IMG/VR virus record: IMGVR_UViG_3300042507_006967
Coordinates: 1 to 30,340 of that record
Direction: 5' to 3' (one strand)
Length of the DNA: 30,340 nt
Source: a virus
Made by a program: the position numbers and the translations under genes. Under the pieces are notes generated by a model that was not told the origin of the DNA, made no database searches, and was given only the letters and a program-made list of their open reading frames with translations. Positions 1,785 through 27,983 of this stretch are shown here, one piece after another; positions within the stretch are counted from its first letter, which is position 1, and every line of letters begins with the position of its first letter.

Positions 1785-3991
1785 TTATTAGATATTTTTG
1801 ATTTATATGCTTGATAAATATCATCATCAAGTATATCATTTTCTTCAAGCATTTCTATTAATTGTTCTTGATAATCATCAACATCAAAATCTACATTATA
1901 TTGAATCCTTTCAAAATCCAATTCAGGTATTGTAGAACCTATATTGATTAGACCATCAATAAAATCTGAACTATCCCCAAATAATGATGTAATTACATGT
2001 TCTGTATCTATATCTTTTATCACTAATTTACTTTCTACCCATTGAAGTGGATTTTCTTTTTTATTGAATGTGTTTGCAGTTAGCCATTCATAAGCCCTTG
2101 AAATAACCGCATTATAATTAGCACTTTGATAGGAATTTTCATATGTTCTATTATATGCTTTTTCAATACATTCTTTAATCTTTTCTGCTACTTCATTTTC
2201 AGAATCTTCTATGTAATTTTGTAAATCACTTGACGATTCTATCTCCTCGATTTCTATTTCAGGATTTCTTCTAATTATGATATTTCTTAAAAGTTCTTCT
2301 GTTTCAGGTTTTAAATAATCAAAAAAAGAATCATCATATTTTTCATACCAATCATACCATAAATCCCAATTCAGAACATCCGTAACTGTATTTTCTTGTT
2401 CAGAAAAAAGTGGAGCTAAATCTGTATAATCATTTAAAGTTAATTCAAATTCATCTTTTGATGAATCGTATTTTAAATTACTTGGTAAATTATTCTTTAC
2501 ATATTCATCCTTTTTAATCAACTTAAATTCTTTGTTGTTTATTGGCAATTCATCATCTCTCCAATAACCCAGATTATCTCTGTCTTCATAATCTTCTAAA
2601 ATATCATCAATGTCTCCATAATAACAAGAGTCTTTATCAAAATCTAAAAATAAAATACTTTCCGCTTTTTCATAATAAAATGTATATGGATGTTCAAGAG
2701 AAAGTGGTATAAAAGTATAATTTTCCGAAAAAAGATTATCTTGCCCTGAATATTTCTTTAAATAAATTACTGATAAATCTGTTGATGACGACATCAGGTC
2801 TTGATTTCTATGAAAAATAGTTATATCATCTATGGTTTTAACATAAGTAAAGTATTTACCAACTAATTCTTTTTCTTCAACCAATCCATCAAAATCTAAA
2901 TTCAAATCTATTTTTTTTGATAAAAATTCTTCTCTTAAATTATAGTCTTTGATTTTTAATACCTGATTAATAGAAATGTCTATTTTTTGCAAAGTCATTA
3001 GATACTTTAACAATTCTTCATTAGGTTTTTCTTTTTCTATTTCATTAGAAAAACAAAAATCAATAGGATTTTTTTCACTACGAGGCATTTCAACATTTAT
3101 ATCTGCACCAGCTTTTACTAAAAATGGAACAATATCATTCTGATTATTAAAAATTGCAATGGTCAAAGGCGTATATTCACTACCTCTTTTATTCGCTTTA
3201 ATGTTTATATCTGCACCATTTTCTAATAATAATTTACATAATTCTTTATTATTGTCTCTTGCGGCATTATGTAAAGGCGTAAATCCCCAATCATCAATGG
3301 CATTTATATTTGCACCATTATCTATTAAAATTTTTACAATTTCTTCAATTCCTTCGTTTACAGCAAGATGTAGTGGACTAAAAGCAAGATAACCCTGCCA
3401 ATTAATATCAGCACCCTTTTCAATCAGTAATTTGGTGAGTATTATTTTTTCTTCTTTTAAATTGATACCTTTAATTAAAGAATGTAAAGCTGAATTATTG
3501 CCTGATGTAATTGCATTAACATCTGCACCTGCATCTATAAGTATTTTAGAAGTTTCATAATTATCACCCAAAGCGTATATTAGAGAAGTAGCCCCATCTT
3601 CATCTTTAGATTCTAAATTTGCTCCTGAATCAATCAATAATTTAACAATTACTTTATAATTGTTTCGTGATGCCTCAATTAAAGCAGTTCTACTATTTCT
3701 ACCTGTAATTTCAAGATTTATTTTATTATCTATAAGTATTTTTATAGTTTCTAAATCAGATGGAAAATTAATTACTCTATATAATAAAGCAGTTTTGTTT
3801 TTATCATCAGCTAAATCAATCAATTGAGTTTCAAGTAAATCTTTTAATAATTGATAATCAGGTTGTTCTCTAAATTCTATCTGACCCCAAAATAAATCTT
3901 TTATTTCTTTTGGAGACTTTAAAAATAAAGCACCTAACCTCTTTATGTCTTCATATTTATTTATTTCTTCAAATAATTTAATGTATTTCAT
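1781..3991 (-). CDS. Ankyrin-repeat protein with prohead-targeting-like N-terminus
   Basis: The product is 736 residues from the ATG at 3991. An ATG seven codons upstream would place the start inside the terminator hairpin at 4007-4031, so the internal start MKYIKLFEEINKYED is preferred; it also matches the leaders of neighbouring proteins. Residues about 65-330 form at least seven ankyrin repeats, with hallmarks such as GATSLIYA, SPLHLAVNEG, GFTPLHNAARD and repeated LL/LI-x-x-GA-D/N-I/V/L-N endings. The remaining roughly 400 residues are very acidic, with many aromatic residues, and I recognise no domain there. Ankyrin repeats bind proteins, so a host- or virion-directed partner is likely. 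The stop overlaps the start of the SWIM-like gene, giving coupled expression. Ankyrin assignment confident; role as a packaged effector is inference. Confidence 0.85.
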   Translation of the reverse strand: MKYIKLFEEINKYEDIKRLGALFLKSPKEIKDLFWGQIEFREQPDYQLLKDLLETQLIDLADDKNKTALLYRVINFPSDLETIKILIDNKINLEITGRNSRTALIEASRNNYKVIVKLLIDSGANLESKDEDGATSLIYALGDNYETSKILIDAGADVNAITSGNNSALHSLIKGINLKEEKIILTKLLIEKGADINWQGYLAFSPLHLAVNEGIEEIVKILIDNGANINAIDDWGFTPLHNAARDNNKELCKLLLENGADINIKANKRGSEYTPLTIAIFNNQNDIVPFLVKAGADINVEMPRSEKNPIDFCFSNEIEKEKPNEELLKYLMTLQKIDISINQVLKIKDYNLREEFLSKKIDLNLDFDGLVEEKELVGKYFTYVKTIDDITIFHRNQDLMSSSTDLSVIYLKKYSGQDNLFSENYTFIPLSLEHPYTFYYEKAESILFLDFDKDSCYYGDIDDILEDYEDRDNLGYWRDDELPINNKEFKLIKKDEYVKNNLPSNLKYDSSKDEFELTLNDYTDLAPLFSEQENTVTDVLNWDLWYDWYEKYDDSFFDYLKPETEELLRNIIIRRNPEIEIEEIESSSDLQNYIEDSENEVAEKIKECIEKAYNRTYENSYQSANYNAVISRAYEWLTANTFNKKENPLQWVESKLVIKDIDTEHVITSLFGDSSDFIDGLINIGSTIPELDFERIQYNVDFDVDDYQEQLIEMLEENDILDDDIYQAYKSKISNK

Positions 3992-4006
3992 AATAATTAA
4001 AGTAAA

Positions 4007-4031
4007 ACCCACCCATATTTATTGAGTGGGT
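4007..4031 (-). terminator. Intrinsic terminator after the WCTA/ankyrin gene
   Basis: The six-base stem ACCCAC / GTGGGT surrounds a 13-nt AT-rich loop. On the minus strand it is followed by TTTTAC. It lies 10 nt beyond the stop of the gene ending at 4042 and rules out the longer start for the next gene. The stem is short, so it may be leaky. Confidence 0.6.
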
Positions 4032-4041
4032 ATTTTATAGA

Positions 4042-5748
4042 TTAAACGCATCCTTCTTTTTTACTATATTCTAAGAATAATTCATGATATTCTTTAAATT
4101 CATCAGGATTTATAATATCAATAGCTTTCATATCTGGGGAAATTCCAGGTCTCAATGTATATCCAGAACAAGAACTAGCACCACATTCTAGAAATGCTTT
4201 ACTTAATAAATAAATGTTTTTCTTATTTCCCTCATTGGTTTCATTCATATATTGGAAAATAGTCATCAGTAGAGGTGAAACAAAACGACTTCCAATATTA
4301 GAATCATTAATTTTTAGACCTCTTTCAATCATATTATTTAGAAGAGTTTTGTAATCTTCATAACTAAAAGTATCAGAATTTGTTTTATTTCCAATTTTCA
4401 AATTCAAAAGAAATGAAGTGACTGAATTGATTTCATTTTTATTAAAATCTAAACCATTTTCAGCATTGTAATTAGGAAGTGTTGATAAAAGTAAAGCAGT
4501 TCTATGTTTTCTAACGTCTTGGAATATACATTCTAATACTATATTAGAAGAACCATTTTCTCTTGTACCTGAACCATCTGCACCCAAACTAATCAGGTAT
4601 TCAGCTATTTTTAATGAAATTTCATCTTGTTTTTCTTTTGAATATCCACCATAATTTGCAGATGCTAAATTCATAAGTGGTGTCATACCATTAGAAAGCG
4701 GAGTATTAATTTTATCTTTATTTTTATCAAAGAAGTTTTTGATAATACGCATATTATATGTTTGCAACCCTACTATAATAATTTTGTTTAATTCTTTATC
4801 TGACAATTCACCATCCATAATAGAATCAACTCTTAATATCAAACCACCAAGAGAAGAACGCTCAGAGTTTGGATTTTTAAGGAATTCAGAAAGGAATGAT
4901 TGCAAGCATTCTCTAATATTAAGAATTTTACTTTCTGGATATTTATTAGGAGATTCTAAAAAGTCATTCCAAAATTCTAAAATGGCATCACCAAATCCTT
5001 GTGATGAATACTTTTGTAAGAAATTATCAAAAGAAACAGAACTATTAGGACAATTATTAAATGAAAATGTACCATTAGATCCGAAATGTAATTGATGACT
5101 AAGTTCAGGATTTTTATAGTTATAAAAAATATAAAGAGGACCTGTGCTTGTATAACTATGCCAATGACCACCACCCCTTCTATTATCAGAATTATCTCCA
5201 GCAGTACACCAATTGCATCCTTCTTTTCCACCATGCCATCCCGCCCAGTATCTTGATTGTTCCCAAGTTAAAGGAATAACAATAGCCCATTCTGAATTAT
5301 CAAAAATTTTAATAAAATCACTCTCAATAGCAATTTTACTCATTTTAGTTTGTAATTTCTTTGAAATATTAAGTTTATTATCAGAGATAAATTTAACGAC
5401 TTCTGTAAATAATTCTGGAGTTTTAATATTTACAATATTCTTCCAATCTGAATATTCTTTAGGAATCCTATTTTTACCAGCATCATAAATTACCAACATA
5501 TCAAAAGCATTAGACAAGAAATTTATGAAATCTTCATAATTCATCGTCTTATACATATTGAATAACCATTGACGATAATTCTTATTTTCAGTAGGATCTG
5601 CAGCAAAAACAGATTGACCTAATTCATCTGTCATTTGAATACCATCTAATGATTTAGAATCAATGTGATATTTTTTATAATCTTCCCATTTCTTTTCTTC
5701 CAAAATTGAAGTGAAAAATGATTCAAATAGTTTAAATGAAGTAATCAT
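4042..5748 (-). CDS. WCTA-domain protein with ankyrin-like C-terminus
   Basis: This 568-residue protein begins MITSFKLFESFFTSILEEKK, an aromatic leader with an I-L-E site that could be a prohead-protease cut. The central part (about 150-230) runs WAIVIPLTWEQSRYW, then NWCTAGDN (W180, C181), then a Gly/His stretch and GPLYIFYN (203-210). A pattern of 'WCTA ... Y ... GPLYI' recurs in phage proteins of unassigned function as far as I recall, and no activity is known to me. Residues about 330-425 look ankyrin-like (GMTPLMNLASANYGG, AEYLISLGADGSG), echoing the bona fide ankyrin protein encoded just downstream. A terminator follows the stop. The gene is probably co-transcribed with the peptidoglycan-binding gene 9 nt upstream. 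Function unknown; possible packaged effector. Confidence 0.75.
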   Translation of the reverse strand: MITSFKLFESFFTSILEEKKWEDYKKYHIDSKSLDGIQMTDELGQSVFAADPTENKNYRQWLFNMYKTMNYEDFINFLSNAFDMLVIYDAGKNRIPKEYSDWKNIVNIKTPELFTEVVKFISDNKLNISKKLQTKMSKIAIESDFIKIFDNSEWAIVIPLTWEQSRYWAGWHGGKEGCNWCTAGDNSDNRRGGGHWHSYTSTGPLYIFYNYKNPELSHQLHFGSNGTFSFNNCPNSSVSFDNFLQKYSSQGFGDAILEFWNDFLESPNKYPESKILNIRECLQSFLSEFLKNPNSERSSLGGLILRVDSIMDGELSDKELNKIIIVGLQTYNMRIIKNFFDKNKDKINTPLSNGMTPLMNLASANYGGYSKEKQDEISLKIAEYLISLGADGSGTRENGSSNIVLECIFQDVRKHRTALLLSTLPNYNAENGLDFNKNEINSVTSFLLNLKIGNKTNSDTFSYEDYKTLLNNMIERGLKINDSNIGSRFVSPLLMTIFQYMNETNEGNKKNIYLLSKAFLECGASSCSGYTLRPGISPDMKAIDIINPDEFKEYHELFLEYSKKEGCV

Positions 5749-5757
5749 ATTATAGTA

Positions 5758-7038
5758 TTATATTATTATAGTTTTTTTAGGTTCACCATCTTTATTAGAT
5801 TCAGTTTCTGGCCATACTTTTTTCGCTTTAGTAGATTTATTTTCCCCTTCTTTATCTACCTTTTCTTCAGAAATATAAGGGATATATGATTTTAATATAT
5901 TTTCTAAAGCCCAACGAGTTTGTTTACCTACCCTACCATCAACTTTTAATTTATTACCATTCTCGTTGTATGAATTTTCTTGAAAACGGATAATAGCATT
6001 GTGGGTAAGTTCACCAAATTTACCAGTAAGACCACCTTTAAATAATCCCATAGATTGAAGTATTCTTTGGATTGTTTTTACAATAGAACCCTCTTGAATA
6101 CCATTATATCCAATCCAGGTTTTTGTCTCTGAATGAGATTGCAATTCTTCTGCATATTTTTTAGCAAGTCTTTTACTAATCTTTTCTTCTTCAATTAAAA
6201 TACAATTATCTATAAGGAGTTCTAAACAATGTACAATAACTGTTGCTCTCCAAGCATTATCAGCACCAGGAATTAAATCATAATAACGCATATGATAATA
6301 TGTATCCTGAATTGACTCTGACATCTTTTTAAGAGGTTTTTCCATAACCGAGATAAATTCTGAAAGATTTGTGATTTCTGTGCTTTCTCCAAAAATTGAA
6401 TGAAATGTCTCTAAATCATATTTCTTTACAAAATCTGATAAACTTACAAAAGTTTGACTCGGTTGATAATTGCTAATGAGGTTTGTTAAGAAAACACCAA
6501 TCATATAAATTGGATTTCTATACTTTCTCGTTTTAATCAAAATTTCCTTTTGTACTACATCAATAGCACTACTTGCATCCGTGTAATCAGCATCGCTTCT
6601 CTCAATTTTTACTTTACTTAGATTTTTAATTTGATCTTGTAAAATAGTTGATAAGAATGATTTATAGTTTTTGATGTCCTCTTTAAGAATTGAAGCTACC
6701 CCTTTGATTTTAGCTTTGTTTTCTTTCATATACATCAAATCCTGATATGCTTCTATATCTTCCAAATCTGTTGTTTGCTCAAGTAGAGTCAGCATACCAT
6801 TTGTACAAGATTTATATCCAACATCAATCATATTCCATAATGAAGATGTAGGAAGAAGGGCTTCTTGGAATGTTTCATTACCATTAAAAATTTCAATGGT
6901 TGATTGTGCGGAAAGGGCTGTAATCTGATATAAGTCAGACATTCTAAATTCCTTTAGTGTCAGACCATAATAACCATCATAAATACCCGAAACTTCGTTG
7001 AGTTTCTTTTCTTTGAATATGTTAAATCGTGTAATCAC
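5758..7038 (-). CDS. Peptidoglycan-binding putative internal virion protein
   Basis: This 426-residue protein starts MITRFNIFKEKKLNEVSG, nearly the same leader as the product of 11284-13398. LNE at 13-15 fits the L/I-x-E prohead-protease site. Residues about 314-385 form a PG_binding_1-type three-helix domain (GSIVKTIQRILQSMGLF...LTGKFGELTHNAIIRFQ...KVDGRVGKQTRWALENIL). The last 40 residues are polar and charged. The middle 250 residues are helical and not recognised. No transmembrane segment or catalytic domain is evident, so the protein probably anchors to cell wall rather than cutting it. A GATATATA box lies 22 nt upstream of the start, just after a terminator, so it heads a two-gene operon. 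Domain call confident, location inferred. Confidence 0.8.
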   Translation of the reverse strand: MITRFNIFKEKKLNEVSGIYDGYYGLTLKEFRMSDLYQITALSAQSTIEIFNGNETFQEALLPTSSLWNMIDVGYKSCTNGMLTLLEQTTDLEDIEAYQDLMYMKENKAKIKGVASILKEDIKNYKSFLSTILQDQIKNLSKVKIERSDADYTDASSAIDVVQKEILIKTRKYRNPIYMIGVFLTNLISNYQPSQTFVSLSDFVKKYDLETFHSIFGESTEITNLSEFISVMEKPLKKMSESIQDTYYHMRYYDLIPGADNAWRATVIVHCLELLIDNCILIEEEKISKRLAKKYAEELQSHSETKTWIGYNGIQEGSIVKTIQRILQSMGLFKGGLTGKFGELTHNAIIRFQENSYNENGNKLKVDGRVGKQTRWALENILKSYIPYISEEKVDKEGENKSTKAKKVWPETESNKDGEPKKTIII

Positions 7039-7060
7039 AGATGTAGTTTTAGGTTTGATG

Positions 7061-7068
7061 TATATATC
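7061..7068 (-). promoter_or_regulatory. GATATATA late-promoter-like box
   Basis: The minus strand reads GATATATA, continuing into CATCA, 22 nt upstream of the ATG at 7038 and directly after the T-rich tail of the terminator at 7079-7110. The terminator-plus-box arrangement is repeated at 18968-19002. Confidence 0.65.
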
Positions 7069-7078
7069 AAAATAAAAA

Positions 7079-7110
7079 GCCCTCTTTTCAATTTCTTCAA
7101 AAAAGAGGGC
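7079..7110 (-). terminator. Intrinsic terminator (10-bp stem)
   Basis: A perfect 10-bp stem GCCCTCTTTT / AAAAGAGGGC with a 12-nt loop, followed on the minus strand by TTTTTATT. It sits about 20 nt past the stop codon of the gene ending at 7131 and immediately before the next promoter-like box. Confidence 0.85.
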
Positions 7111-7130
7111 TACTATTTATAGTTTTTATA

Positions 7131-8042
<912 letters not shown>

Positions 8043-8061
8043 TTATATATTTTTATTTTAC

Positions 8062-9546
8062 TTAAACAATTGTTTGAGACCCTGTTATACTACCACTATT
8101 TTGATATTTTTGAGCATATCTATTAGAAATGGTTTGCATAAGACTTTTGGTCTCATTTCCAATCATACCATCCACTAATTTAGCCTTCATTGCTGCTTGG
8201 AATTTTTTTACTCCTTCTTCAGTAACCTTATCAAAATAAGAATCATTCAATTTGGATGGAGGAAGAGCATTCATATAAACAAGAAAATTATTAATAAGTT
8301 TAACCATATCAGATGACATTTTCTGTGAGCCTGACTTATAAACTAAACCACCTCTTGTATAAAATCCTTTAGAACTCAATTCATTTGAAGATGCTATTAG
8401 ATTTAACGCTCTTTGCTTTTTAGATTCAAGAGCTTGTGCTTCTGCTTCTTTTTTAAGTTCTTCTTCTTTTTGAACACCTGCCATTTCAACCTCAATATTC
8501 AAATTGATGAGTTTAAGTGCAAGAATAACAACCATACACATGAACATAACTTGTAGAGAAGGTGTAAAAATATTCTTTACAATTTCTTCTTGTTCAGAAA
8601 ATACACGTTTAATCAAAATTGAAGAAACCTCATTAAGTAAAGTTGATAAGGGTTCAAATACACTAATGTCCGTTGAAGGTATAGATTGCTTCAACGCTTG
8701 TATTGCATCTGGACCTACTATTGACCCATCTAAATTAATTGAACCATAATTTTCACCAAACTTCTCTTTTAGTCTTTGAGTATATGGAAACATTAACATG
8801 ACTAATTCAAAAAATGATGAAAAACGATCATAAACATCGGTAGATTCAAGCATTTTATTCAAATCTATATTAGAACCTATCATTACAGCAGGAAATGAAG
8901 ATGCTGAATCAGATTCAATCTTTTGTAAATCCATAGCATCTATTTTAGTATAAAGTGCTTTAAGACCTACAGTTGAACCATATTGCTCTAAACTAGCTAA
9001 AGTTTGTTTAATAATAACTGATAAATCAACATTATACAACGAAATGAAACTTTGTCTTAATGCTTCAGATTTAAAGTCAACAGAACCACTTTTTTTAAAC
9101 ATTTTTACGACTTCATCTATCTTTGGGATAACGGAAGATATTCCACTTGGACTTGTTATCTCTGAAACCTTTTTAACAGATTTCTTGAATCCTTGAGTTT
9201 TAGTTGCATCTAAAACTTGTTGAAATCCTTGTGCTAATTCTTTTTCAATAGTTTGAACTTTATTTTGAATATATCCAACTTGTGAACGAATAAACTCAAA
9301 AGAGTTTGTTATAGTTGATTTATCTTTTCCTAAAATAGAAGAAAGAGAAGGGATGATTGATTTGATAAAATTGTGCATCGCTTCAGACTTTTCAATATCC
9401 AAACCCTCAAAAAGTTTGTCAATTGTTAATTTATTTAGTCTGAATTCTGCATCAGTATCAAAAAAACCTGTCCAATCACTAGAAATAAAATTCCCTTCAT
9501 TGATATTGAAATCTAAGTTTGGATCGTTAAAATTCTTAAAAAGCAT
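8062..9546 (-). CDS. Membrane-spanning peptidoglycan-binding putative internal virion protein
   Basis: This 494-residue protein starts MLFKNFNDPNLDFNINEGNF, with INE-G at 15-18 matching the putative leader cleavage site. It is mostly helical, with a strong transmembrane segment at about 318-338 (LQVMFMCMVVILALKLINL) preceded by FTPS, then a charged Glu/Lys/Ala helix (346-370). A C-terminal PG_binding_1-like domain follows at about 402-465 (VKLINNFLVYM...GVKKFQAAMKAKLVDGMIGNETKSLM). It appears paralogous to the product of 9918-11267: both have GLEID/GLDIE near residue 50, KKSGS-x-D and I/T-PSLQ before the hydrophobic segment. A GATATATA box lies 26 nt upstream. Wall and membrane contact is consistent with acting during genome entry, which is inference. 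Confidence 0.78.
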   Translation of the reverse strand: MLFKNFNDPNLDFNINEGNFISSDWTGFFDTDAEFRLNKLTIDKLFEGLDIEKSEAMHNFIKSIIPSLSSILGKDKSTITNSFEFIRSQVGYIQNKVQTIEKELAQGFQQVLDATKTQGFKKSVKKVSEITSPSGISSVIPKIDEVVKMFKKSGSVDFKSEALRQSFISLYNVDLSVIIKQTLASLEQYGSTVGLKALYTKIDAMDLQKIESDSASSFPAVMIGSNIDLNKMLESTDVYDRFSSFFELVMLMFPYTQRLKEKFGENYGSINLDGSIVGPDAIQALKQSIPSTDISVFEPLSTLLNEVSSILIKRVFSEQEEIVKNIFTPSLQVMFMCMVVILALKLINLNIEVEMAGVQKEEELKKEAEAQALESKKQRALNLIASSNELSSKGFYTRGGLVYKSGSQKMSSDMVKLINNFLVYMNALPPSKLNDSYFDKVTEEGVKKFQAAMKAKLVDGMIGNETKSLMQTISNRYAQKYQNSGSITGSQTIV

Positions 9547-9572
9547 AGTTGTATTGTATTGTTTTATATGCC

Positions 9573-9580
9573 TATATATC
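9573..9580 (-). promoter_or_regulatory. GATATATA late-promoter-like box
   Basis: The minus strand reads GATATATA followed by GGCAT, 26 nt upstream of the ATG at 9546, in the 72-nt gap after the small gene at 9619-9882. The gap holds nothing else recognisable. Confidence 0.6.
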
Positions 9581-9618
9581 TATTATCAAAAATCATTATT
9601 TAAGTTTTCAATAAAGAT

Positions 9619-9882
9619 TTAAGCATAATATAATTGTTCTTTAGACTTATTTTGAGTTTGTGACTTTGAATCTTCTTTTTTTGAAATTGGAATTAGTTCG
9701 GATAAACCAACTAATTCATATAAAGCAGTTAAGTCATAAACATCAGCATTGATTTTTATTGTACGAACTCTTTCTTCAGATGATTTTGTTTCTTCATTAA
9801 CTCTTTCATCTAAAATAATGTTTTTATGAATGATATTGTTTTCATTCATTTGAACGAAATTTTTAAAATTTAATATTCTCAT
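9619..9882 (-). CDS. Small putative internal virion protein
   Basis: An 87-residue product consisting of little more than the shared leader, MRILNFKNFVQMNENN, then a charged polar segment. MNE at 12-14 fits the leader site, and a second candidate, VNE-E, lies at about residue 29. Its N-terminus is very like that of the product of 7131-8042 (R-I-L-x-F-x-x-F). The only other feature is a short hydrophobic patch, DLTALYELVGLSELIPI, in the middle. No domain was recognised. In size and make-up it is the closest match in the block to the small internal proteins of T4, which are a cleavable leader plus a small charged body. It lies between two larger members of the same block and shares their direction. 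Role inferred only. Confidence 0.65.
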   Translation of the reverse strand: MRILNFKNFVQMNENNIIHKNIILDERVNEETKSSEERVRTIKINADVYDLTALYELVGLSELIPISKKEDSKSQTQNKSKEQLYYA

Positions 9883-9917
9883 AGTTATTTACTTTTTTTA
9901 TGTGAAATTAATCACTT

Positions 9918-11267
9918 TTATACATTAGAAAGTTTTTCTACATCTTCCATAAAGACTTTCATAATAAAACGAGTATCTTTACCAATTCTACCATCAACCT
10001 TTATATCTTTACCTTTAATTTTAATATTTTGTTGAATTAAACGAACAGCTTGTCCTAAAAACTTTTTATCAAAATCACCTTTATTAAGGTATTCACTACC
10101 AACATTTTTAGTAATTAATCCAAGTTCATAGAAAAACTTTTTAAGTGCAATAATCATTTCTTTTTCACGATCAGTATAAGATTTATTTTCATAAAAAACT
10201 TTTGTGCTTTCCATGAAATCTGTACCTAAAAGATTATTATATGATTGTACCACTTTTTTAGTTTTTTCAATAGTTTCTTTAGAAACTTCACCATTTCCTA
10301 TTTCTCCTTTTACTGATTTACCTCTACCTAAACTTTTAACTATAACAGGTAAAGTCATAAAAGATACAAGAGCGATATATAAACTTTGCAAAGAAGGGAT
10401 TGTGATATTTTCTGAATATACTTCGGAGAGTTTTTCAACTTCTGGTTGTACAATTTGATTTCCAACACTATCAATCACATTCTTATAATTGCTCAATTCT
10501 GAAGTTGTAATAGATTCCGAACCTAATAATGGTATCAAAATAGAACTTAAAAACTCAAAAGGATTTTGATTATATGTAATATAAGAAATACCCTTTATTT
10601 TCATTGTTGATAAAGCCATTTCAAGCATTACTGAAATTCTTTTGATAGGATCACTAGATACTAATTCTTTATTGCTATCAAAAGAACCACTCTTTTTAAC
10701 CCAACCGCCTTGAATGTTTTCAGGTACAAAAGAATTAGATTTTAAACTAGGAAGTCCTAAATTATCAATAACATCATAAACAGAACTTTCTAAACCTGTT
10801 GAATTTGAATTAACTTTATCACTTAAAGAAGTAATAAACTTGTTAATCATATCAGCGTTAAAAGAATTTACTAAATTTTTTAATGGAGTAAAATCAATAT
10901 CAGATTCTTCTATTGTTATAGTTTTTTTAGATATATTTTTTTCAACATTTTGAATATATGAACTCACATATTCAAGTTGTCTAACTACTATTAAATTTGC
11001 TGTTTTTGTTTCAGCTGTACTTTCAATGAAAATATCTTTACAACTTGGTAGCATTGAAGCTAGTTTAGGATATGATTCATCAGATGTATCTATTTCTAAT
11101 CCACGCAAAAGATGATAGATACTTAATTGATTTAGTGTATCTTTTGCACTTGTTCTAAGTAATCCTCCTGAAAAACTTTCATTTATAGCAGATCCCGATG
11201 GAAAACTTCTATTAAGAGAGGTTTTTACTTCTTTTACTTTTTTAAAGTATGAATTATCAAATTCCAT
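9918..11267 (-). CDS. Membrane-spanning peptidoglycan-binding putative internal virion protein
   Basis: This 449-residue protein has the leader MEFDNSYFKKVKEVKTSLNR and SAINESF at 26-32, where INE-S fits the proposed cleavage site. A hydrophobic segment at about 289-312 (ITIPSLQSLYIALVSFMTL) is likely membrane-spanning. A C-terminal PG_binding_1-like domain lies at about 366-440, ending IKVDGRIGKDTRFIM, very close to KVDGRVGKQTRWAL in the product of 5758-7038. It is a probable paralog of the product of 8062-9546 from the order and local matches (KKSGS-x-D, PSLQ before the membrane segment). It lies 16 nt downstream of the large coiled-coil gene, with no promoter box of its own, so it belongs to the operon that starts at 14626. 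Confidence 0.78.
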   Translation of the reverse strand: MEFDNSYFKKVKEVKTSLNRSFPSGSAINESFSGGLLRTSAKDTLNQLSIYHLLRGLEIDTSDESYPKLASMLPSCKDIFIESTAETKTANLIVVRQLEYVSSYIQNVEKNISKKTITIEESDIDFTPLKNLVNSFNADMINKFITSLSDKVNSNSTGLESSVYDVIDNLGLPSLKSNSFVPENIQGGWVKKSGSFDSNKELVSSDPIKRISVMLEMALSTMKIKGISYITYNQNPFEFLSSILIPLLGSESITTSELSNYKNVIDSVGNQIVQPEVEKLSEVYSENITIPSLQSLYIALVSFMTLPVIVKSLGRGKSVKGEIGNGEVSKETIEKTKKVVQSYNNLLGTDFMESTKVFYENKSYTDREKEMIIALKKFFYELGLITKNVGSEYLNKGDFDKKFLGQAVRLIQQNIKIKGKDIKVDGRIGKDTRFIMKVFMEDVEKLSNV

Positions 11268-11283
11268 ATCATTTGTGTTTTTT

Positions 11284-13398
11284 TTATCTATTTGTTAATA
11301 CCGATTGCATTTGCTGTATATATCCCTGAACATTTTGTCTTGATTGTATTTCTTCAGGTGATACAACTCCTGCTAATATTTCAGGAGTAGCCATATTCAA
11401 AAGTTCTATTTGTTTTGCAAGATATGCTAATGTTAAAACATCCGCTTTACCATTAATTTCTATTTTATCGTTTGCATATTTACCATTTGTTTGAATACCT
11501 GCTACTATTTTTGAAAGTTCTACATCATAAATTCCATTAACCTCACCATCATAAAGATTTATCTTCTTTAAAGAATCTTGAAGAAGTTTTACATCAGAAC
11601 CTGTATCCCCTATTTGCATATATTGTCGTTCTTGTCCGTTATTATCAAAACGTTTGATAAGACCAATAGGTTTATCAAGATTTTTTGAGTCTGCTGTAAT
11701 AGGAACATTACCTGAGAAGAAAAAATTCTCAAAAGAAGATAGCATCGCTGCATATGCTGATATTGTTCCAAATGTGTATAAGCCTGGAGTAGGTAATTGG
11801 AAAGAACTTTCCCACTTTGTCTGTATAGATTGAAGCATCTGCTGTGGAGAAGCCATAGCCATCAAATAGTTATTAAAGGTTGGACTTGCAATCTGATCAA
11901 GACATTTTTTAGCATCATCACTTGACATAATTCTATTTGACTCAAGAGATTCAACACAAACCTTAAAGAAATCATGAGGATCTCCACTACTTGCCTTTTC
12001 TTGTTGTATTTTATAAACATTATGAAATGTTAAAAAGGGTTCAAATTTATCTTCAAACATTTCTAATTCTAATGCTGTTAATACTTTTGTTATAGGTTCA
12101 TTAGCAGTTTCTTTATTAGATTTATCAAACCATTGAGATAGCCAATAAATACCATAACCAATAGCACCCCATTTAATTGCAGCAGTAAACATTTTACCTT
12201 TGAAATAAGCAGATACCCAAGACAATAATTTATTAGTTCTATCTTGTTGGCGGATTCTTTGTTCTTCTAATTTTCTTAATTTCTCTTGTTCTTTAAGATA
12301 TCTTTTTTGATCTTTCAATGATTTTAATTCTTCGCTCTTTCTTTTTGATTCTTCTTTTTTCTTTTTATGATTTTCCCAAAATTCATCCCATTTGGATTTT
12401 TTATTAGCATCAATTGAATCATTTGCTTTGCCCTTTTTACCTTCACCGATTTTAACTTCACCAACTTTTAAATTTTCAACTTTACGAGGATTTTCCTTGA
12501 TTGGTGTAGACAAATCTATTTTCCCACTATTAATCGCTTCTTCTCCTTTAAATTTAATAGATGTTGTTACATTTTCAAATCCAGGAATTTTTCTCATAGC
12601 TTCTGTATCAATCTTTGAAAATTGAGAAGCGTTAACATTTATCTTTTCTACTCCACTTGCTACAGATTTTACCTCATCATCTACATGAGAAACAGCACTC
12701 GCTATACCCTTTTCATCTTTTGCTACCCCTCTTAATGTTTCACCAGTTTTTGTAAAAATACCCTTAAATAAAGACTTTCCACTTTTTACTATTTCAGATG
12801 CTCGACCAAAATTATATCTTTCATTTAATTCGCCATATTCTAAAGATTCATTAGTTCCTGAAGGGTTTGGCTCTATAACTTTATTATTCAGAGAATTAAC
12901 CAAAGAGTTTATAGGTTGTTCAGATTCATACCACCCCTTTAAAGAATTTGTTATAATAGTTCCAATAGTTATAGGATTGCTTTTCAAATCATTCAATACC
13001 GATTCATCTAATTTATTAATCTCAAAATCTGCACTCATACTTGAGATTTCATTAAGAATCTCTATTATGTTCTTAATATAATAATTATTAGTTACCTCTA
13101 TCATCGTACTATCTACTGTCAAAGGTTCTTCTAATTTTAATGTAGATAACTCATCTTCCTTTAAAATTTCCATAAGTTGAGCATATATTCCAATTCTCAA
13201 ATTGGCAATTGGAGTATTGTACATTTGTTTAAGACCTGCTGAAAGTTCATCTTCACCTAATGCAGCTTTATAAGCATCAGATGGGGAATATTCTCCAAAA
13301 AGTTTGCTCACAGGTTTAACAAGTCTTTGTTCAACCCAATCAGGAAACACAGACTCTTCGTTCAACTTTTGTTCATATTTATTAAATCTCGTAATCAT
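11284..13398 (-). CDS. Large coiled-coil, membrane and peptidoglycan-binding putative internal protein
   Basis: At 704 residues this is the second-largest product of the block. The leader MITRFNKYEQKLNEESV carries LNE at 12-14; another L-N-E (201-203 region, GELNERYNF) could be a second protease site. Residues about 336-396 form a highly charged coiled coil rich in Lys, Glu and Arg, directly followed by a transmembrane segment at about 403-423 (MFTAAIKWGAIGYGIYWL). A PG_binding_1-like repeat lies at about 593-662 (MQIGDTGSDVKLLQDSLKK...GIYDVELSKIVAGIQ). The organisation (leader, helical body, coiled coil, membrane span, wall binding) suggests a multi-part protein spanning envelope layers. Its stop lies 16 nt before the next gene and its start 4 nt after the preceding gene, within one operon. 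Confidence 0.8.
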   Translation of the reverse strand: MITRFNKYEQKLNEESVFPDWVEQRLVKPVSKLFGEYSPSDAYKAALGEDELSAGLKQMYNTPIANLRIGIYAQLMEILKEDELSTLKLEEPLTVDSTMIEVTNNYYIKNIIEILNEISSMSADFEINKLDESVLNDLKSNPITIGTIITNSLKGWYESEQPINSLVNSLNNKVIEPNPSGTNESLEYGELNERYNFGRASEIVKSGKSLFKGIFTKTGETLRGVAKDEKGIASAVSHVDDEVKSVASGVEKINVNASQFSKIDTEAMRKIPGFENVTTSIKFKGEEAINSGKIDLSTPIKENPRKVENLKVGEVKIGEGKKGKANDSIDANKKSKWDEFWENHKKKKEESKRKSEELKSLKDQKRYLKEQEKLRKLEEQRIRQQDRTNKLLSWVSAYFKGKMFTAAIKWGAIGYGIYWLSQWFDKSNKETANEPITKVLTALELEMFEDKFEPFLTFHNVYKIQQEKASSGDPHDFFKVCVESLESNRIMSSDDAKKCLDQIASPTFNNYLMAMASPQQMLQSIQTKWESSFQLPTPGLYTFGTISAYAAMLSSFENFFFSGNVPITADSKNLDKPIGLIKRFDNNGQERQYMQIGDTGSDVKLLQDSLKKINLYDGEVNGIYDVELSKIVAGIQTNGKYANDKIEINGKADVLTLAYLAKQIELLNMATPEILAGVVSPEEIQSRQNVQGYIQQMQSVLTNR

Positions 13399-13402
13399 AG
13401 AA

Positions 13403-14626
13403 TTATTGGGCTATTTGAGTTTCTTCTTCTGAAAAATCAGTAATAAGTTCATAGATAACTTCGCCTAAAACCCAAAACGCATAAATTGTTAGGAGAAACA
13501 TTACGAACTGACTTATACCTGGAATTGGAATTAATATACCCGCCAAACCAGCAATGATTTTGTCTATCAAAATATATTTTCCAAAATCCGACATTGCTGA
13601 AATCAATATTGCAAAAGTCGGACCCATAACCTTAAATTCATAAGGTCCTGCAACAGAAAAATGTTCATTAAGAAATTTTGAAGAATATTCAAGTGCTTGA
13701 TTACCATTAGTTTTGATATATTCCGAAAATTCTTTAATCCAACTAAATGGGGGAAGCATATCCAATTTAGAACAAGACCATTCATAAAACTTTTCAATCA
13801 TTTCAATAGACTCGTTCAGTTTTTTCATATCACTAAACGATTTTATTCTCATTGAAGAAGAATTGAGTTTTTTATGATTATTTATATCTACAATACCTTC
13901 CGTGATCGCCGAAGGTAAAAGTTCTATAATTGAATTTTTAATGTTGTTTTCAATATGATTATCTACTTTTGATTCATTAACGGCTTTATTTAATGACATC
14001 GTTACTTTAGAAGCAAATACTTCCCCATGTATAATATTACTTACGCTATCAACAAACATAGAACTTAATTGTCCAGTTTCTTTTGAAAGCGTATTCCATA
14101 TTTCTTTATATTCTTCTGATGAGGTTTCATTTAAGGATTCTTTGATTCCTGAAATCTGTTGATTCAAAGAAATCGTTATTTGTCTTTTTAGAGATTTATT
14201 ACCAGAAAACCAATTATTTGTTTCAATTTTAACTGCTTCCCATGTGCTTTTAACACTATCCATAATTTTCTTTACAACATCTTCAATAGCTTTTGCTAAA
14301 TTTGTTCCTAATTCAACTACCCAATTAACTGCACTACTAACAACACTTTTAACTGTATCAGCAGTTTTTCCAACAGTATCTTGAAGCCAAGTGTTCAATT
14401 TTGAAAACCACGAATCTTCCTTTAACATATACCAATCATAAAAAGATAATTGTTCATTACTTATAAATGAAAGAACATATCTTTGCGTTTCTGTTAAATA
14501 TATGTCTTCTGATTCCATAATTGCTTCAGCAATAGGGATATAGCATTTTTGAGTAATTTTCGTTTTAGAAAATTGCTTTGATTGAAAATAATCGTTGAAT
14601 GAAAGTATTTGTTCTCTATTTTTCAA
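13403..14626 (-). CDS. Membrane-inserting putative internal virion protein
   Basis: This 407-residue protein has the leader MKNREQILSFNDYFQSKQ and, at 31-35, PIAEA; I-A-E-A equals the site cleaved in T4 internal proteins as I recall them. Residues about 80-140 are amphipathic helices rich in Val, Ala and Trp (DTVGKTADTVKSVVSSAV, NWVVELGTNLAKAIEDVV), resembling tape-measure or pore-forming segments. Residues about 332-393 are strongly hydrophobic, with two or three membrane spans (IIAGLAGILIPIPGISQFVMF). The tail is acidic. No peptidoglycan-binding or enzymatic motif was found. It is the first gene after the GATATATA box at 14651. A pore or channel former is plausible but unproven. Confidence 0.72.
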   Translation of the reverse strand: MKNREQILSFNDYFQSKQFSKTKITQKCYIPIAEAIMESEDIYLTETQRYVLSFISNEQLSFYDWYMLKEDSWFSKLNTWLQDTVGKTADTVKSVVSSAVNWVVELGTNLAKAIEDVVKKIMDSVKSTWEAVKIETNNWFSGNKSLKRQITISLNQQISGIKESLNETSSEEYKEIWNTLSKETGQLSSMFVDSVSNIIHGEVFASKVTMSLNKAVNESKVDNHIENNIKNSIIELLPSAITEGIVDINNHKKLNSSSMRIKSFSDMKKLNESIEMIEKFYEWSCSKLDMLPPFSWIKEFSEYIKTNGNQALEYSSKFLNEHFSVAGPYEFKVMGPTFAILISAMSDFGKYILIDKIIAGLAGILIPIPGISQFVMFLLTIYAFWVLGEVIYELITDFSEEETQIAQ

Positions 14627-14650
14627 ATTATACTCTTTAATTTTATCTAT

Positions 14651-14658
14651 TATATATC
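14651..14658 (-). promoter_or_regulatory. GATATATA late-promoter-like box
   Basis: The minus strand reads GATATATA followed by ATAGA, 24 nt upstream of the ATG at 14626, in the 57-nt gap between the M15 peptidase gene and the membrane protein gene. No terminator hairpin was seen in this gap. Confidence 0.6.
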
Positions 14659-14683
14659 TGTTTTTATATTTGTTTTATGAATA

Positions 14684-15664
14684 TTACTTTGTCCAAAATG
14701 CACTCTTATGTCCTAATACATTTCTTACATCAACATGAGTAAATTTACTTCCAATATAAAGACCAATACCACCCTGATGAAAGGATTTTAACCATGTAGT
14801 GATTTCAGAAGGGGAAACTCCATCTATTCTGATGTCTGCTGCATTTCCAAACATATGTTGAGAAATTCCAGCCCCACCTATCTTTTTATTGTATGTAGGA
14901 GTTCTATATCCTGATATAATTGTAAGTTTCTTATTGTAATGTGCTATTATTTTTTCAAGAAGTTCTACTAAATATGGATTGATAAGAATAATGTCAGAAC
15001 CATCTTTACAAGCAAAATCTTTTACTTTTATGTGTTCTGATACATTTTTATCGCCATCTTTTGATTTGCTATATTGAATAGAAAATCTGTATCTATCAGA
15101 ATATTTTGAAAGTGGGAAATTTATTCCTTCTTGTCCACCTTCTCCCATACTAACAGATGATGGTGGTAAAATTATGCTTGATGGGGTGGTAACAGAAGGA
15201 ACTTCTTTAGGAAGTTCTTTTTCACCCTTTGTTTCACCTTCAACCTCTTTATCTTCAGGTTCTTTTTCTTCAAATTCTAAAAGAAATTGTATAAATTCAA
15301 AGGGAATTGTATTTTGAATTGTTATAGGTAGTTTAAAATTAGCAATCATACTTTTAACTGCTTCTAAAGTAGCAGCATCTAAAATTCCATCTGCTTTATG
15401 ATTCTTCAAAAAATCATAAGAAATTAAAATAGATTGTAAAACTGAAATATCTTGATTCTTTTCTGAAATAGTTAATATCTTTGTGCCATTAATAACATCG
15501 TCTGAAAAATAAGTCTTGGTTATTTCTTTTACCAATTCTTCTTTTTTTGATTTATCTTTTTCATCTTTAATTAGTTTTATGGCTTCTTCAGCATTCTGAA
15601 TTTTTATTTCATTCAAAACGAAATCTGAAAAATTTAGAATAAATCTATTTTTATTTAAATCCAT
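14684..15664 (-). CDS. Peptidoglycan-binding M15 (M15_3-type) peptidase
   Basis: A 326-residue probable zinc D,D- or L,D-carboxypeptidase or endopeptidase that cuts peptidoglycan peptide bridges. The leader MDLNKNRFILNFSDFVLNEI has LNE-I at 17-20. Residues about 64-112 are a PG_binding_1-like domain (ISVLQSILISYDFLKNHKADGILDAATLEAVKSM). An acidic Pro/Ser linker (132-175) follows. The catalytic domain at about 210-318 has SGYRTPTYN (251-259), SQHMFGNAADIRI (268-280) and FTHVDVR (308-314), giving likely zinc ligands H270, D277 and H310. All expected residues are present. It is encoded next to a second, differently built M15 peptidase and is the last gene before the 14651 promoter box. Enzyme family confident; packaging in the head is inferred from the leader. 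Confidence 0.88.
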   Translation of the reverse strand: MDLNKNRFILNFSDFVLNEIKIQNAEEAIKLIKDEKDKSKKEELVKEITKTYFSDDVINGTKILTISEKNQDISVLQSILISYDFLKNHKADGILDAATLEAVKSMIANFKLPITIQNTIPFEFIQFLLEFEEKEPEDKEVEGETKGEKELPKEVPSVTTPSSIILPPSSVSMGEGGQEGINFPLSKYSDRYRFSIQYSKSKDGDKNVSEHIKVKDFACKDGSDIILINPYLVELLEKIIAHYNKKLTIISGYRTPTYNKKIGGAGISQHMFGNAADIRIDGVSPSEITTWLKSFHQGGIGLYIGSKFTHVDVRNVLGHKSAFWTK

Positions 15665-15686
15665 AACTAATAATTATTTTTATAAA

Positions 15687-16658
15687 TCAAACAATATATT
15701 GAGTTGATTGAGGTGAAGATAGTTCAAAGTGCATACCGTCCTTTCTTCTTCTATAATGACCGCCCCAATAAAATCCTAATTTATTAGCAATAGGGACAAG
15801 TTCTCTAACACTACCTTTTTCTCCAACAGCAGGTGGAGTAACAAATAAACCATTGTATTTTGTATTAATATCAAAAGCAACCCCGAAGGCATGATTACTC
15901 AATGTTGTATTACTACCTCTTATAAATCTTGGATAATAACATCCATTAAATGTTATAACTCTTGAAAGCAAACCTGCATTTTCCCACTCTTGCCATAACT
16001 GAATCATCGATTTTGCGGCCAATCTATGACATTTCAATCTTGTGGATCTGGGGTTTTGTATTTTAGCAAGTTGAGGGATTTCTATTGTGATGATATTATC
16101 TTTTTCAAAATTATTAGTTATGATTATACCACCATCACCTTTTGATTTATATTCTAATGGACCATAAAGTCTTTGAGCATCTTCAACGGTTAAATATTTT
16201 AAGTCTGTCGGCACTGGTGGCCAATTATATCTATCTTCACTCGCTTCTTTTGGAAGGGTAGCAAAAACTTTACTCTTTACTTGTGGACTTTTTGTAATAT
16301 CTGTAGAGGTTATTGTATAAGTTGTAAATAAATCTATGATACCCTTTCCTATTGGTTGATTTACATCAAATGAAACATTGTATTTAGAACTATATGATTT
16401 TATGGCATAAATAGTTTTTTCGTCAATTTTTCCACTCATTTCATTATTTTTCAAATATCCTAAACCACATAGTATTGTTTGTAAAATTTTAACATCTTGA
16501 CTTTCATCTCCAATAGCCAATGATAATTGTCCTGATTGAAGTTCATCAGAAAAAAATTCTTTACTCACATATTGAACAATAGATTTAGTTTCTTCTGAAT
16601 TTTTTGAATTACGAAGAGCGTCAATTATGCTTTTAGGGGTTTCTAAATCAACTAACAT
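15687..16658 (-). CDS. Peptidoglycan-binding M15 (VanY/M15_4-type) peptidase
   Basis: This 323-residue probable zinc peptidase acts on peptidoglycan. Residues about 46-95 form a PG_binding_1-like domain (GDESQDVKILQTILCGLGYLK...GKIDEKTIYAIKSY). The catalytic domain covers about 190-313, with NGCYYPRFIRGSNTTLSNH, then HAFGVAFDIN (256-265) and DGMHFEL (307-313). H256, D263 and H310 are the expected zinc ligands, and WGGHYRRRKDGMHFE is typical of M15_4 members. Unlike most of its neighbours it lacks the aromatic leader and the x-N-E site, so it may be located elsewhere (tail or baseplate). Its N-terminal 40 residues resemble residues 25-60 of the other M15 enzyme (KEFFSDEL versus KTYFSDDV), so the two share an ancestral N-terminal module. 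Confidence 0.88.
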   Translation of the reverse strand: MLVDLETPKSIIDALRNSKNSEETKSIVQYVSKEFFSDELQSGQLSLAIGDESQDVKILQTILCGLGYLKNNEMSGKIDEKTIYAIKSYSSKYNVSFDVNQPIGKGIIDLFTTYTITSTDITKSPQVKSKVFATLPKEASEDRYNWPPVPTDLKYLTVEDAQRLYGPLEYKSKGDGGIIITNNFEKDNIITIEIPQLAKIQNPRSTRLKCHRLAAKSMIQLWQEWENAGLLSRVITFNGCYYPRFIRGSNTTLSNHAFGVAFDINTKYNGLFVTPPAVGEKGSVRELVPIANKLGFYWGGHYRRRKDGMHFELSSPQSTQYIV

Positions 16659-16667
16659 ATTTTATTC

Positions 16668-18467
16668 CTATTTCTGTAATAATTTCAATAAATAATCTGC
16701 ATATTTATCTACTACCAATTTTAGATATTCTTCAACCGCTTTATTCTTATTACTTATAAAAAAATAATTGCTCGGATTTTTATCATAAATAATAAATGAA
16801 CGATTATTTAATTCATCTCTGAAATATGAATCAGTCGAATTAATCAAATCATAAATCATTTCTTGATTAGCTTGTATGATTTTACTCTTTGAAGAATTTT
16901 TTATAACTCCAATAAGTTTGCTTTGGGTTTTATCAGGATTCTTGATAACCGATTCAATGTCTTTTATTTGATTATAAAGTTCCTGATAAAATTGGCTACT
17001 ATTAACTAATCGTTCTGATTCTGTTTTAGGTGCTTTCTCCTTTTCAGAAGCAATGAACATATCAATTTCATTTTGAGGTTCTTCTGTATTTTCTGAAGGT
17101 GTATTTTCAGATTCAATATCAGAAGGCATTTCACTTGCTAAAGAATCTTTAACGAATGAATAAAAACTATTAAGAATTTCTGGATTCTCATTAATAATGG
17201 TAGCAAGTTTTAAACCCTCATTATTAGTACCATCCATAAAATAATAAAGACCATCTACCATTTTTGATTTAATGAATATCTTCTTTTCAAGAGATTCAGG
17301 GCTAATTGTTTTATATTTACCAACCATAATATCATCAAGCATGATACTTATGAATGATGAAATTATTTGCTTTCTTTGAGTTCCTGAACTTACTTTATTA
17401 AAAATGGAATATAGTTTTGTTTGAATTGGAGTTTTGCCTTTTACACTTTCCAATGATAAAGTTGCATTTATTGCATTTGTAGTTTCTTCAACAATTAGAG
17501 TTTTTCTATCTACATTTTCCTTATCAGAAATTTCATATCCTTTTTCCACCTTTGGTTCAGAAATAGTCTTTTCTTCAGCACTCGGTTCGCTCTTTTGTTG
17601 ATTTTGTTGAGGCACACCTGATAAAATTTCATCTTCCATAGATTTTGAAGCATCTATAATTTCTTCTTTTTCTTCTTGTGGAATTTCTTCTATCTCTTTT
17701 TTCCAAGAACTCAAAAGTTCTTTTCTATCATAAGGTGGATTACCAACGATTAAAACTGGACCTTCAATCCCTTCAACTGATATATCTACAATATCAACAT
17801 TTTCAAATTTATTACTCTTAATGAGTTTTTTAAGAGCATTAAAAGGAACTTGTATATTTTGTGAAAGACTTGATAAAAATATCATCCCTGGAGTATCAGT
17901 TGTCTTATCATAATCAAAATAAGGATACTTTACAAGAAAACGAGTCACTTGTACATAAGCATTGTCTATGTTATATTCAGGAGTTGAGATTTCTTTATCG
18001 CTTTTAAGATATGACATAAAGTCTGAAAATATAGACTCATACATATATCTACTCGTTCTTTTCTTTCTTTTTGTACGATAACCACTATATCCAAAATCTT
18101 CTATGTAATCTGAAAATGTATTTATATTATAATCAGAAGAAGATTTAGAATAACCTTTACCAATCTTTTCTGAAGGTAATATTACTAAAACATCCCCACT
18201 CCAAACTTTAGAATTAATTTTAATAACTTTGAGATTTTCAATATTGAGTTCTTTTATGACTTTTTTAATATACTTCTCAGTCGTAACTATAGCTTGAGCA
18301 AGTTTTTCCAAAGGACAAAGCCCAGGTAAGCCTGTATTTACTTCATAGCCGTATTGCTTATTATTATTCAAGAATACTTGGATACGCTCCAAAGTTTTCT
18401 TGTATTCTTTTTGCTTTTTATCTTTTAAAAAATCAAAAAAAGATTCATGCACATTTGAATATCTCAT
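16668..18467 (-). CDS. Protein with duplicated ~100-residue N-terminal domain, unknown
   Basis: This 599-residue protein contains an internal tandem duplication. Residues 2-96 (SNVHESFFDFLKDKK...FLNNNKQYGYEVNTGLPGL...GDVLVI) align with 140-241 (YMYESIFSDFMSYLKSDKE...FLVKYPYFDYDKTTDTPGM...GPVLIV). Each copy ends in a beta strand of the form V-K/D-I-x-x-I/V...G-x-VLI. A Gly/Ser/Tyr and then basic spacer (RTKRKKR, 131-137) separates them. Residues 265-330 and 445-490 are acidic, Gln/Glu/Pro-rich linkers around a helical region. No enzymatic motif or membrane segment was seen. The N-terminus is aromatic but has no clear x-N-E site. It lies second in the operon that starts at 18941. Function unknown. 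Confidence 0.75.
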   Translation of the reverse strand: MRYSNVHESFFDFLKDKKQKEYKKTLERIQVFLNNNKQYGYEVNTGLPGLCPLEKLAQAIVTTEKYIKKVIKELNIENLKVIKINSKVWSGDVLVILPSEKIGKGYSKSSSDYNINTFSDYIEDFGYSGYRTKRKKRTSRYMYESIFSDFMSYLKSDKEISTPEYNIDNAYVQVTRFLVKYPYFDYDKTTDTPGMIFLSSLSQNIQVPFNALKKLIKSNKFENVDIVDISVEGIEGPVLIVGNPPYDRKELLSSWKKEIEEIPQEEKEEIIDASKSMEDEILSGVPQQNQQKSEPSAEEKTISEPKVEKGYEISDKENVDRKTLIVEETTNAINATLSLESVKGKTPIQTKLYSIFNKVSSGTQRKQIISSFISIMLDDIMVGKYKTISPESLEKKIFIKSKMVDGLYYFMDGTNNEGLKLATIINENPEILNSFYSFVKDSLASEMPSDIESENTPSENTEEPQNEIDMFIASEKEKAPKTESERLVNSSQFYQELYNQIKDIESVIKNPDKTQSKLIGVIKNSSKSKIIQANQEMIYDLINSTDSYFRDELNNRSFIIYDKNPSNYFFISNKNKAVEEYLKLVVDKYADYLLKLLQK

Positions 18468-27924: not shown

Positions 27925-27983
27925 AAGTAATTGAAAAGTGTGTAAATGAATATTATAGATAAATATACAAAATTGTTTTCTAA

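What the first reader, a model, noticed from the sequence alone, without database searches (positions are those of the whole stretch)
5758..16658. Six peptidoglycan-binding domains in one gene block
PG_binding_1-like domains occur in the products of 5758, 8062, 9918, 11284, 14684 and 15687. In four they are C-terminal on otherwise uncharacterised proteins and in two they precede an M15 peptidase. Several keep the K-V-D-G-R-I/V-G-K-x-T-R core, so they probably spread by duplication within the phage. This is far more wall-binding capacity than a single tail lysin requires and suggests a multi-protein assembly built at the host wall.
Basis: partly seen in the sequence, partly recalled or inferred. 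Interest (0 to 1): 0.68.

Follow-up and report, generated by a model that had tools for sequence, protein, structure and literature searches.

The report
Wall-binding proteins tagged for phage head
A huge T4-type phage carries, beside its portal gene, a family of cell-wall-binding proteins, most of which begin with what looks like T4's "pack me into the head" tag, so they are probably carried inside the virion and injected to grip or open the host wall, rather than being parts of the tail.

Summary
The six peptidoglycan-binding (PGB) domains are real, though uneven: two pass Pfam's cut-off outright, one passes in a domain scan, and three rest on orthologues, paralogy or profile comparison. The block lies directly behind the T4-type portal gene, where T4 encodes its prohead core. 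Most of its products, including four or five of the six PGB proteins, start with the motif [FY]xx[FY]…[LIV]xE. That motif is the capsid-targeting sequence (CTS) and protease site of T4 internal head proteins: T4 IPI, II and III match the same pattern. In the block it is found in 7 of 13 genes, against about 1.4% of internal windows. The two M15 peptidases are paralogues: every orthologue of one has the tag, and every orthologue of the other lacks exactly that tag. In a 200-kb relative, the prohead protease carries a scaffold-like tail of 14 copies of the same motif at a 14-residue period. Best explanation: head-packaged, ejected proteins that bind or cut the wall, resembling podophage ejectosomes. 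Packaging is well supported by sequence; ejection and wall action are inferred.

The parts
5758..7038 (-). PGB protein 1 (426 aa): CTS-like tag MITRFNIFKEKKLNE (6994-7038), ~300-aa helical body unique to this lineage, PG_binding_1 at 5908-6090
   Evidence: Pfam 40.6 bits; domain scan; tag aligned in 4 orthologues
7131..8042 (-). CTS-tagged protein of unknown fold (303 aa), tag ILKFQDF (7989-8042); only 27% identical to its G003 counterpart, tag kept
8062..9546 (-). PGB protein 2 (494 aa): tag FKNF..INE (9496-9546), helical body, hydrophobic helix 8494-8550, PG_binding_1 at 8137-8304; full-length paralogue of 9918
   Evidence: Pfam 28.5 bits
9619..9882 (-). Small protein (87 aa) with tag MRILNFKNFVQMNE (9841-9882)
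9918..11267 (-). PGB protein 3 (449 aa): degenerate tag with invariant NE site (INESF; N-terminal stretch 11178-11267), hydrophobic helix 10338-10394, PGB region 9939-10175
   Evidence: hhalign to 8062 family 100%; AlphaFold model pLDDT 77
11284..13398 (-). PGB protein 4 (704 aa): tag MITRFNKYEQKLNE (13357-13398), PGB region 11395-11631
   Evidence: sub-threshold in the window (15.8 bits); orthologues pass; profile hits SleB PGB E 0.004
13403..14626 (-). CTS-tagged protein (407 aa): ILSFNDYF (14582-14626), conserved YIPIAE possible cleavage site, hydrophobic C-terminus; no PGB
14684..15664 (-). PGB + M15 peptidase WITH tag FILNFSDFVLNE (15608-15664); PGB 15320-15457; M15_3 14729-15013
15687..16658 (-). 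PGB + M15 peptidase WITHOUT tag; PGB 16380-16502; M15_4 15720-15917
16668..18467 (-). 599-aa protein of unknown function, N-terminus MRYSNVHESFFDFLKD, in the same operon-like run
18477..18941 (-). 154-aa protein directly after the portal, tag MRIFEEYKKNKVNE (18900-18941); 81-90% conserved among close relatives; sits where T4 has gp67/gp68
19010..20641 (-). T4-type portal (gp20 family)
   Evidence: phrog_213 E 6e-66
20660..21271 (-). gp2-like DNA end protector (head)
   Evidence: phrog_429 E 5e-8
22061..22555 (-). gp4-like head closure protein
   Evidence: phrog_218 E 9e-41
4042..5748 (-). 568-aa CTS-tagged candidate cargo: MITSFKLFESFFTSILEE (5695-5748)
1781..4012 (-). Ankyrin-repeat protein, CTS-like MKYIKLFEE from internal Met8
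   Evidence: Ank_2 E 1e-72

Best explanation
The block is an expanded set of T4-type internal head proteins. A short N-terminal targeting peptide (aromatic at i and i+3, then a [L/I/V]xE cleavage site) docks each protein on the prohead core, probably by mimicking the coiled-coil repeat that forms the tail of the prohead protease/scaffold. The prohead protease then cuts after the E, freeing the mature protein inside the head. On infection the mature proteins leave with the DNA through the tail tube. Their C-terminal PGB domains, and in one case an M15 endopeptidase, then bind and locally open the host wall, as the ejectosome proteins of T7-like phages do. The untagged M15 paralogue (15687) stays outside the head and would serve in lysis or another role. 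Shown by sequence: the PGB domains, the motif, its T4 match, the tagged/untagged pair, the head-gene neighbourhood, the repeat in relatives' protease. Inferred: packaging, cleavage, ejection, wall action.
For: Motif [FY]xx[FY]..[LIVM]xE within the first 28 residues: 7/13 block genes against 1/18 other window genes and 1.4% of internal windows; in the 200-kb relative G003 7/12 against 17/189 and 2.6%. [LIVM]NE site in the first 35 residues: 8/13 against 5%. Experimentally known T4 CTS proteins IPI, IPII and IPIII all match the pattern; 1 of 27 T4 background genes does; residues 4/7 target and 8/10 process in T4 (PMC9026906). Tagged/untagged M15 paralogues: 6/6 against 0/7 orthologues, with the lost stretch being exactly the tag. 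Similar tags on unrelated bodies (5758/11284; G001 8203/17049). Position after portal, gp2-like and gp4-like genes, where T4 has prohead core genes 67, 68, 21, 22. G003 protease has 14 copies of [YH]xx[YH][LIV]x[EQ], nearly all at 14-residue spacing (shuffles max 3); more distant relatives have 5-8 motif copies and several have a tagged small protein between portal and protease. Precedent for wall-degrading ejection proteins: T7 gp16 and PhiM1 (PMC11440229).
Against: No virion proteomics is at hand for this lineage. The block was delimited after the motif was seen and its genes are partly paralogous, so the p-values are optimistic; the G003 block is orthologous and not an independent sample. 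9918 has only a degenerate tag and 15687 none. The protease and scaffold repeat were seen in relatives, not in this 30-kb fragment. T4's own gp22 and gp21 lack the repeat. Contractile-tail phages do not usually need an ejected trans-envelope channel. 14684, 15687 and 11284 PGB domains are divergent and may not bind peptidoglycan. The hydrophobic helices show no clear positive-inside bias, so membrane insertion is uncertain.
Confidence: 0.6

Rival explanations
1. Tail or baseplate wall-degrading assembly: the PGB proteins decorate the tail tip and anchor it to the wall.
For: M15 + PGB proteins are typical tail or free lysins (phrog lysis hits); 13403 has weak tape-measure-like hits.
Against: The block follows portal, gp2-like and gp4-like head genes; CTS-like N-termini; no hit to a tail hub or baseplate family among the six.
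Confidence: 0.12
2. Head-assembly platform: the proteins are made late, insert in the host inner membrane through the hydrophobic helix, hold the wall with the C-terminal PGB and bind the prohead core through the tag, tethering assembling heads to membrane and wall.
For: Conserved hydrophobic helix before the PGB in the 8062, 9918 and 11284 families; T4 proheads assemble on the inner membrane (PMC5694885).
Against: No clear charge bias for topology; a cleavage site behind the tag would cut the tether; the helix may be buried in the fold (model confident there).
Confidence: 0.1
3. The PGB fold has been co-opted as a protein-protein module within the head core and never meets peptidoglycan.
For: Several domains are far from the family consensus and below Pfam cut-offs; the family is restricted to a few related phages.
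Against: 5758, 8062 and 9918 keep the canonical VDG-x-[IV]G-x-x-T core; the tagged 14684 joins PGB to an M15 peptidase with a conserved H...D motif.
Confidence: 0.12

Closest known systems
T4 internal proteins IPI/IPII/IPIII and Alt with their capsid-targeting sequence
   Same: N-terminal aromatic i/i+3 motif followed by a hydrophobic-x-E site (IPI, IPII, IPIII tested); unrelated cargos behind one tag; location among head genes
   Different: T4 cargos are nuclease inhibitors and an ADP-ribosylase, not wall-binding proteins; here the tag recurs as tandem repeats in the relatives' protease/scaffold, which T4 lacks
Ejectosomes of T7, P22 and PhiM1 podophages
   Same: Proposed: head-stored proteins, some with peptidoglycan-active domains (T7 gp16, PhiM1; PMC11440229)
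   Different: Those are short-tailed phages with portal-mounted cores; here a T4-type phage with CTS sorting; no sequence or fold similarity detected
Ejection proteins of giant phage SPN3US / phiKZ
   Same: Giant phage with many head-packaged, protease-processed proteins (PMC5694885)
   Different: SPN3US propeptides are mostly much longer (over 100 residues) with A-x-E sites; here 10-30 residues, T4-like
PG_binding_1 + M15 endolysins
   Same: Domain pair in 14684 and 15687
   Different: 14684 and its aligned orthologues carry an added capsid-targeting N-terminus

Membership tests
PG_binding_1 (PF01471) | Profile score above the curated cut-off | tested here: inconclusive
   Met for 5758 and 8062 and for 14684 in the domain scan; met by orthologues of 11284; not met for 9918 and 15687, which rest on paralogy
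PG_binding_1 (PF01471) | Three-helix PGB fold | tested here: inconclusive
   9918: three confident helices in the right order, only weak Foldseek hits to PGB-like viral proteins; 11284 model unusable
PG_binding_1 (PF01471) | Binds peptidoglycan | not testable with these tools
   needs purified domains
M15 peptidase | Family profile match with catalytic-site motif | tested here: met
   PF08291 E 4e-21, PF13539 E 5e-17; H and D of SxHxxGxAxD invariant in 13 sequences, later H present in each group
T4-type CTS internal head proteins | Aromatic i/i+3 motif near the N-terminus followed by hydrophobic-x-E | tested here: met
   5758, 8062, 11284, 14684 and several neighbours; 9918 degenerate; 15687 not met
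T4-type CTS internal head proteins | Encoded by a phage with T4-type portal, prohead protease and major capsid protein | tested here: met
   portal in the window; S77 protease and Gp23 in close relative G003
T4-type CTS internal head proteins | Found inside the head, propeptide removed by the protease | not testable with these tools
   needs virion mass spectrometry
Podophage-type ejectosome | Homology to known ejection proteins | tested here: not met
   no Pfam, PHROG or fold match of that kind for the block proteins
Podophage-type ejectosome | Ejected before or with DNA and spans the periplasm | not testable with these tools
   needs infection assays or cryo-ET

The most novel reading that the evidence does not exclude
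A T4-type huge phage has built a head-stored wall-penetrating assembly from CTS-tagged PGB proteins and a tagged M15 peptidase. Its targeting tag works because it copies one repeat of a 14-residue coiled-coil array in the protease/scaffold protein, so docking site, tag and cleavage site are one and the same motif.
Probability: 0.35. Interest if true: 0.8.

Novelty: new variant of a known kind. Interest (0 to 1): 0.58.

Why it matters
If right, it shows that a T4-type phage sorts wall-binding and wall-cutting proteins into its head, which would extend ejectosome-like entry beyond short-tailed phages. It gives a sequence rule for predicting head-packaged cargo (ankyrin, RimK-like and KilA-N proteins with the same tag) in uncultured huge phages. 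It also suggests a concrete answer to how the T4 capsid-targeting sequence is recognised: by likeness to a scaffold repeat, which is directly testable.

Tried and rejected
A structure model of 11284 was too poor to use (pLDDT 44). PDB and viral fold searches with the 9918 model gave no significant match, so the ~300-aa helical body stays unidentified. A loose motif pattern was uninformative (35% against 19-22%) and was replaced by the T4-based strict one. De novo motif search recovered a K-Y-[IF]-x-[L]-F-E N-terminal motif with higher likelihood than shuffles, but the mixture fraction hit its ceiling, so it was not used for counts. Membrane topology by charge was inconclusive. Searches for the block proteins in GenBank phages (5758, 13403) and in bacterial and archaeal genomes (8062 family) found nothing, so the host could not be inferred. 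18477 is not detectably homologous to the small core protein of distant relatives. Literature searches found no report of PGB proteins as CTS-tagged head proteins or of CTS-like scaffold repeats in the open-access library; subscription papers were not searched.
Full report
Setting. The window is a 30-kb viral fragment, 25-33% G+C, without tRNA genes. Its portal protein (19010-20641, phrog_213 E 6e-66) is of T4 type and 32-39% identical to those of huge-phage records of 460-735 kb, including Lak phages. A gp2-like end protector and a gp4-like head closure protein stand on its upstream side. The block of interest is the next run of genes on the same strand.

The six domains. 5758 and 8062 pass Pfam's cut-off, 14684 passes in a domain scan, and 11284 passes only in its orthologues. 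9918 is supported as a full-length paralogue of 8062, with a confident three-helix region in the predicted model. 15687 is supported by its alignment to 14684. A profile of the six finds the solved PGB domain of spore lytic enzyme SleB (E 3e-7). The KVDGR core is exact in two of six and resembles the general family consensus.

Duplication. 8062 and 9918 are related over their full length (probability 100%), and relatives hold extra copies (G002 and G003). 14684 and 15687 share the N-terminal ~100 residues but have different M15 subfamilies. 5758 shares only the PGB region with 9918 and 8062 (94% and 69%), and 11284 only that region, weakly. So two duplications are supported and the other spread is not resolved. 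The expansion is peculiar to this small lineage: four close-relative records have 5-7 hits each, most more distant kin and T4 have none, and the bodies of the proteins were found only in a handful of related contigs.

The products begin alike: MITRFNIFKEKKLNE, MITRFNKYEQKLNE, MRIFEEYKKNKVNE, MRILNFKNFVQMNE, ILSFNDYF, FILNFSDFVLNE, FKNF...INE. In T4, ten N-terminal residues target internal proteins into the head; residues 4 and 7 do the targeting, 8 and 10 the processing (PMC9026906). The pattern built on that, [FY]xx[FY] followed within ten residues by [LIVM]xE, is met by T4 IPI, IPII and IPIII and by 1 of 27 other T4 genes tested. In the window it is met by 7 of 13 block genes, 1 of 18 others and 1.4% of internal windows; in G003 by 7 of 12, 17 of 189 and 2.6%. 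The [LIVM]NE site is likewise enriched (8/13 against 5%). I drew the block limits after seeing the motif, and the genes include paralogues, so the p-values (about 1e-8) are indicative only.

Two natural experiments support a sorting tag. All six aligned orthologues of 14684 have the tag, and all seven of 15687 start right where it ends. And similar tags sit on unrelated bodies, such as 5758 and 11284 in the window and 8203 and 17049 in G001. Outside the block, similarly tagged genes include a RimK-like ATP-grasp protein and ankyrin proteins in G003, and in G001 a KilA-N protein within the block. These look like candidate injected cargo.

The core. In G003 the S77 protease and Gp23 capsid genes lie far from the portal, whereas in more distant relatives they follow it as in T4. 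The G003 protease is a 672-residue protein. After the protease domain, residues 262-457 hold 14 copies of [YH]xx[YH][LIV]x[EQ], typically YSNYLAE, with a 14-residue period and one 21-residue step; shuffles of the region give at most 3. Proteases of distant relatives have 5-8 copies. In several of those relatives the gene between portal and protease encodes a ~110-130-residue protein starting with the same motif (FEQFISE, FEQFIFE). A tag that copies a scaffold repeat would dock by joining the coiled coil and would carry the protease site with it. T4's gp21 and gp22 do not show the repeat, so this is an inference about the present lineage.

How it probably works. Tagged proteins enter the prohead core, are cut after E, remain in the packaged head and leave with the DNA. 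The PGB domains would then hold the proteins at the wall and the tagged M15 peptidase would open it. Peptidoglycan-active domains in head-stored ejected proteins are known from T7 gp16 and PhiM1 (PMC11440229), and massive head cargo from SPN3US (PMC5694885). Hydrophobic helices in 8062, 9918, 13403 and the orthologues of 11284 would suit insertion in the inner membrane, but topology is unresolved. I put head packaging at roughly 0.75; the full account, with ejection and action at the wall, is scored 0.6 because those last steps rest on analogy.

Limits. Gene starts are predicted. The window's own genome is a fragment, so protease, scaffold and capsid are read from relatives. No virion proteome is at hand. 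One of two structure models failed, and fold searches gave no significant match.

Noticed in passing
L094 (G003:166459-168477, - strand): Prohead protease with a C-terminal array of 14 motif copies ([YH]xx[YH][LIV]x[EQ]) at 14-residue period, matching the T4 capsid-targeting motif; distant relatives have 5-8 copies.
   Followed up: yes
G003:25709-26710 (L087): Another PGB ORF; starting at internal Met38 it would begin MRTFYEYLNE, a perfect T4-like targeting sequence, so the longest-ORF start is probably wrong.
   Followed up: partly
G003:97289-98707 (L091): RimK-like ATP-grasp protein (PF08443 E 1e-31) with a targeting-like N-terminus (ILDYSSFLNES): a possible injected modifying enzyme, comparable in role to T4 Alt.
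   Followed up: partly
window 1781-4012: Ankyrin-repeat protein with a targeting-like N-terminus from Met8 (MKYIKLFEE); variable ankyrin genes lie at similar places in relatives.
   Followed up: partly
G003:12509-18730 (L086): Three ~240-aa proteins with nearly identical MKYLKLFE[NS]WLNE N-termini; two of the three bodies are clearly similar, no Pfam match for the one tested.
   Followed up: no
window 21285-22055 and 26683-28032: Glycosyltransferase-like genes set among head and tail genes (26683: PF00535 E 3e-15).
   Followed up: no
window 328-1068: Flavodoxin/FMN-reductase-like protein (PF03358, below cut-off) conserved at the far end of the block in G003.
   Followed up: no
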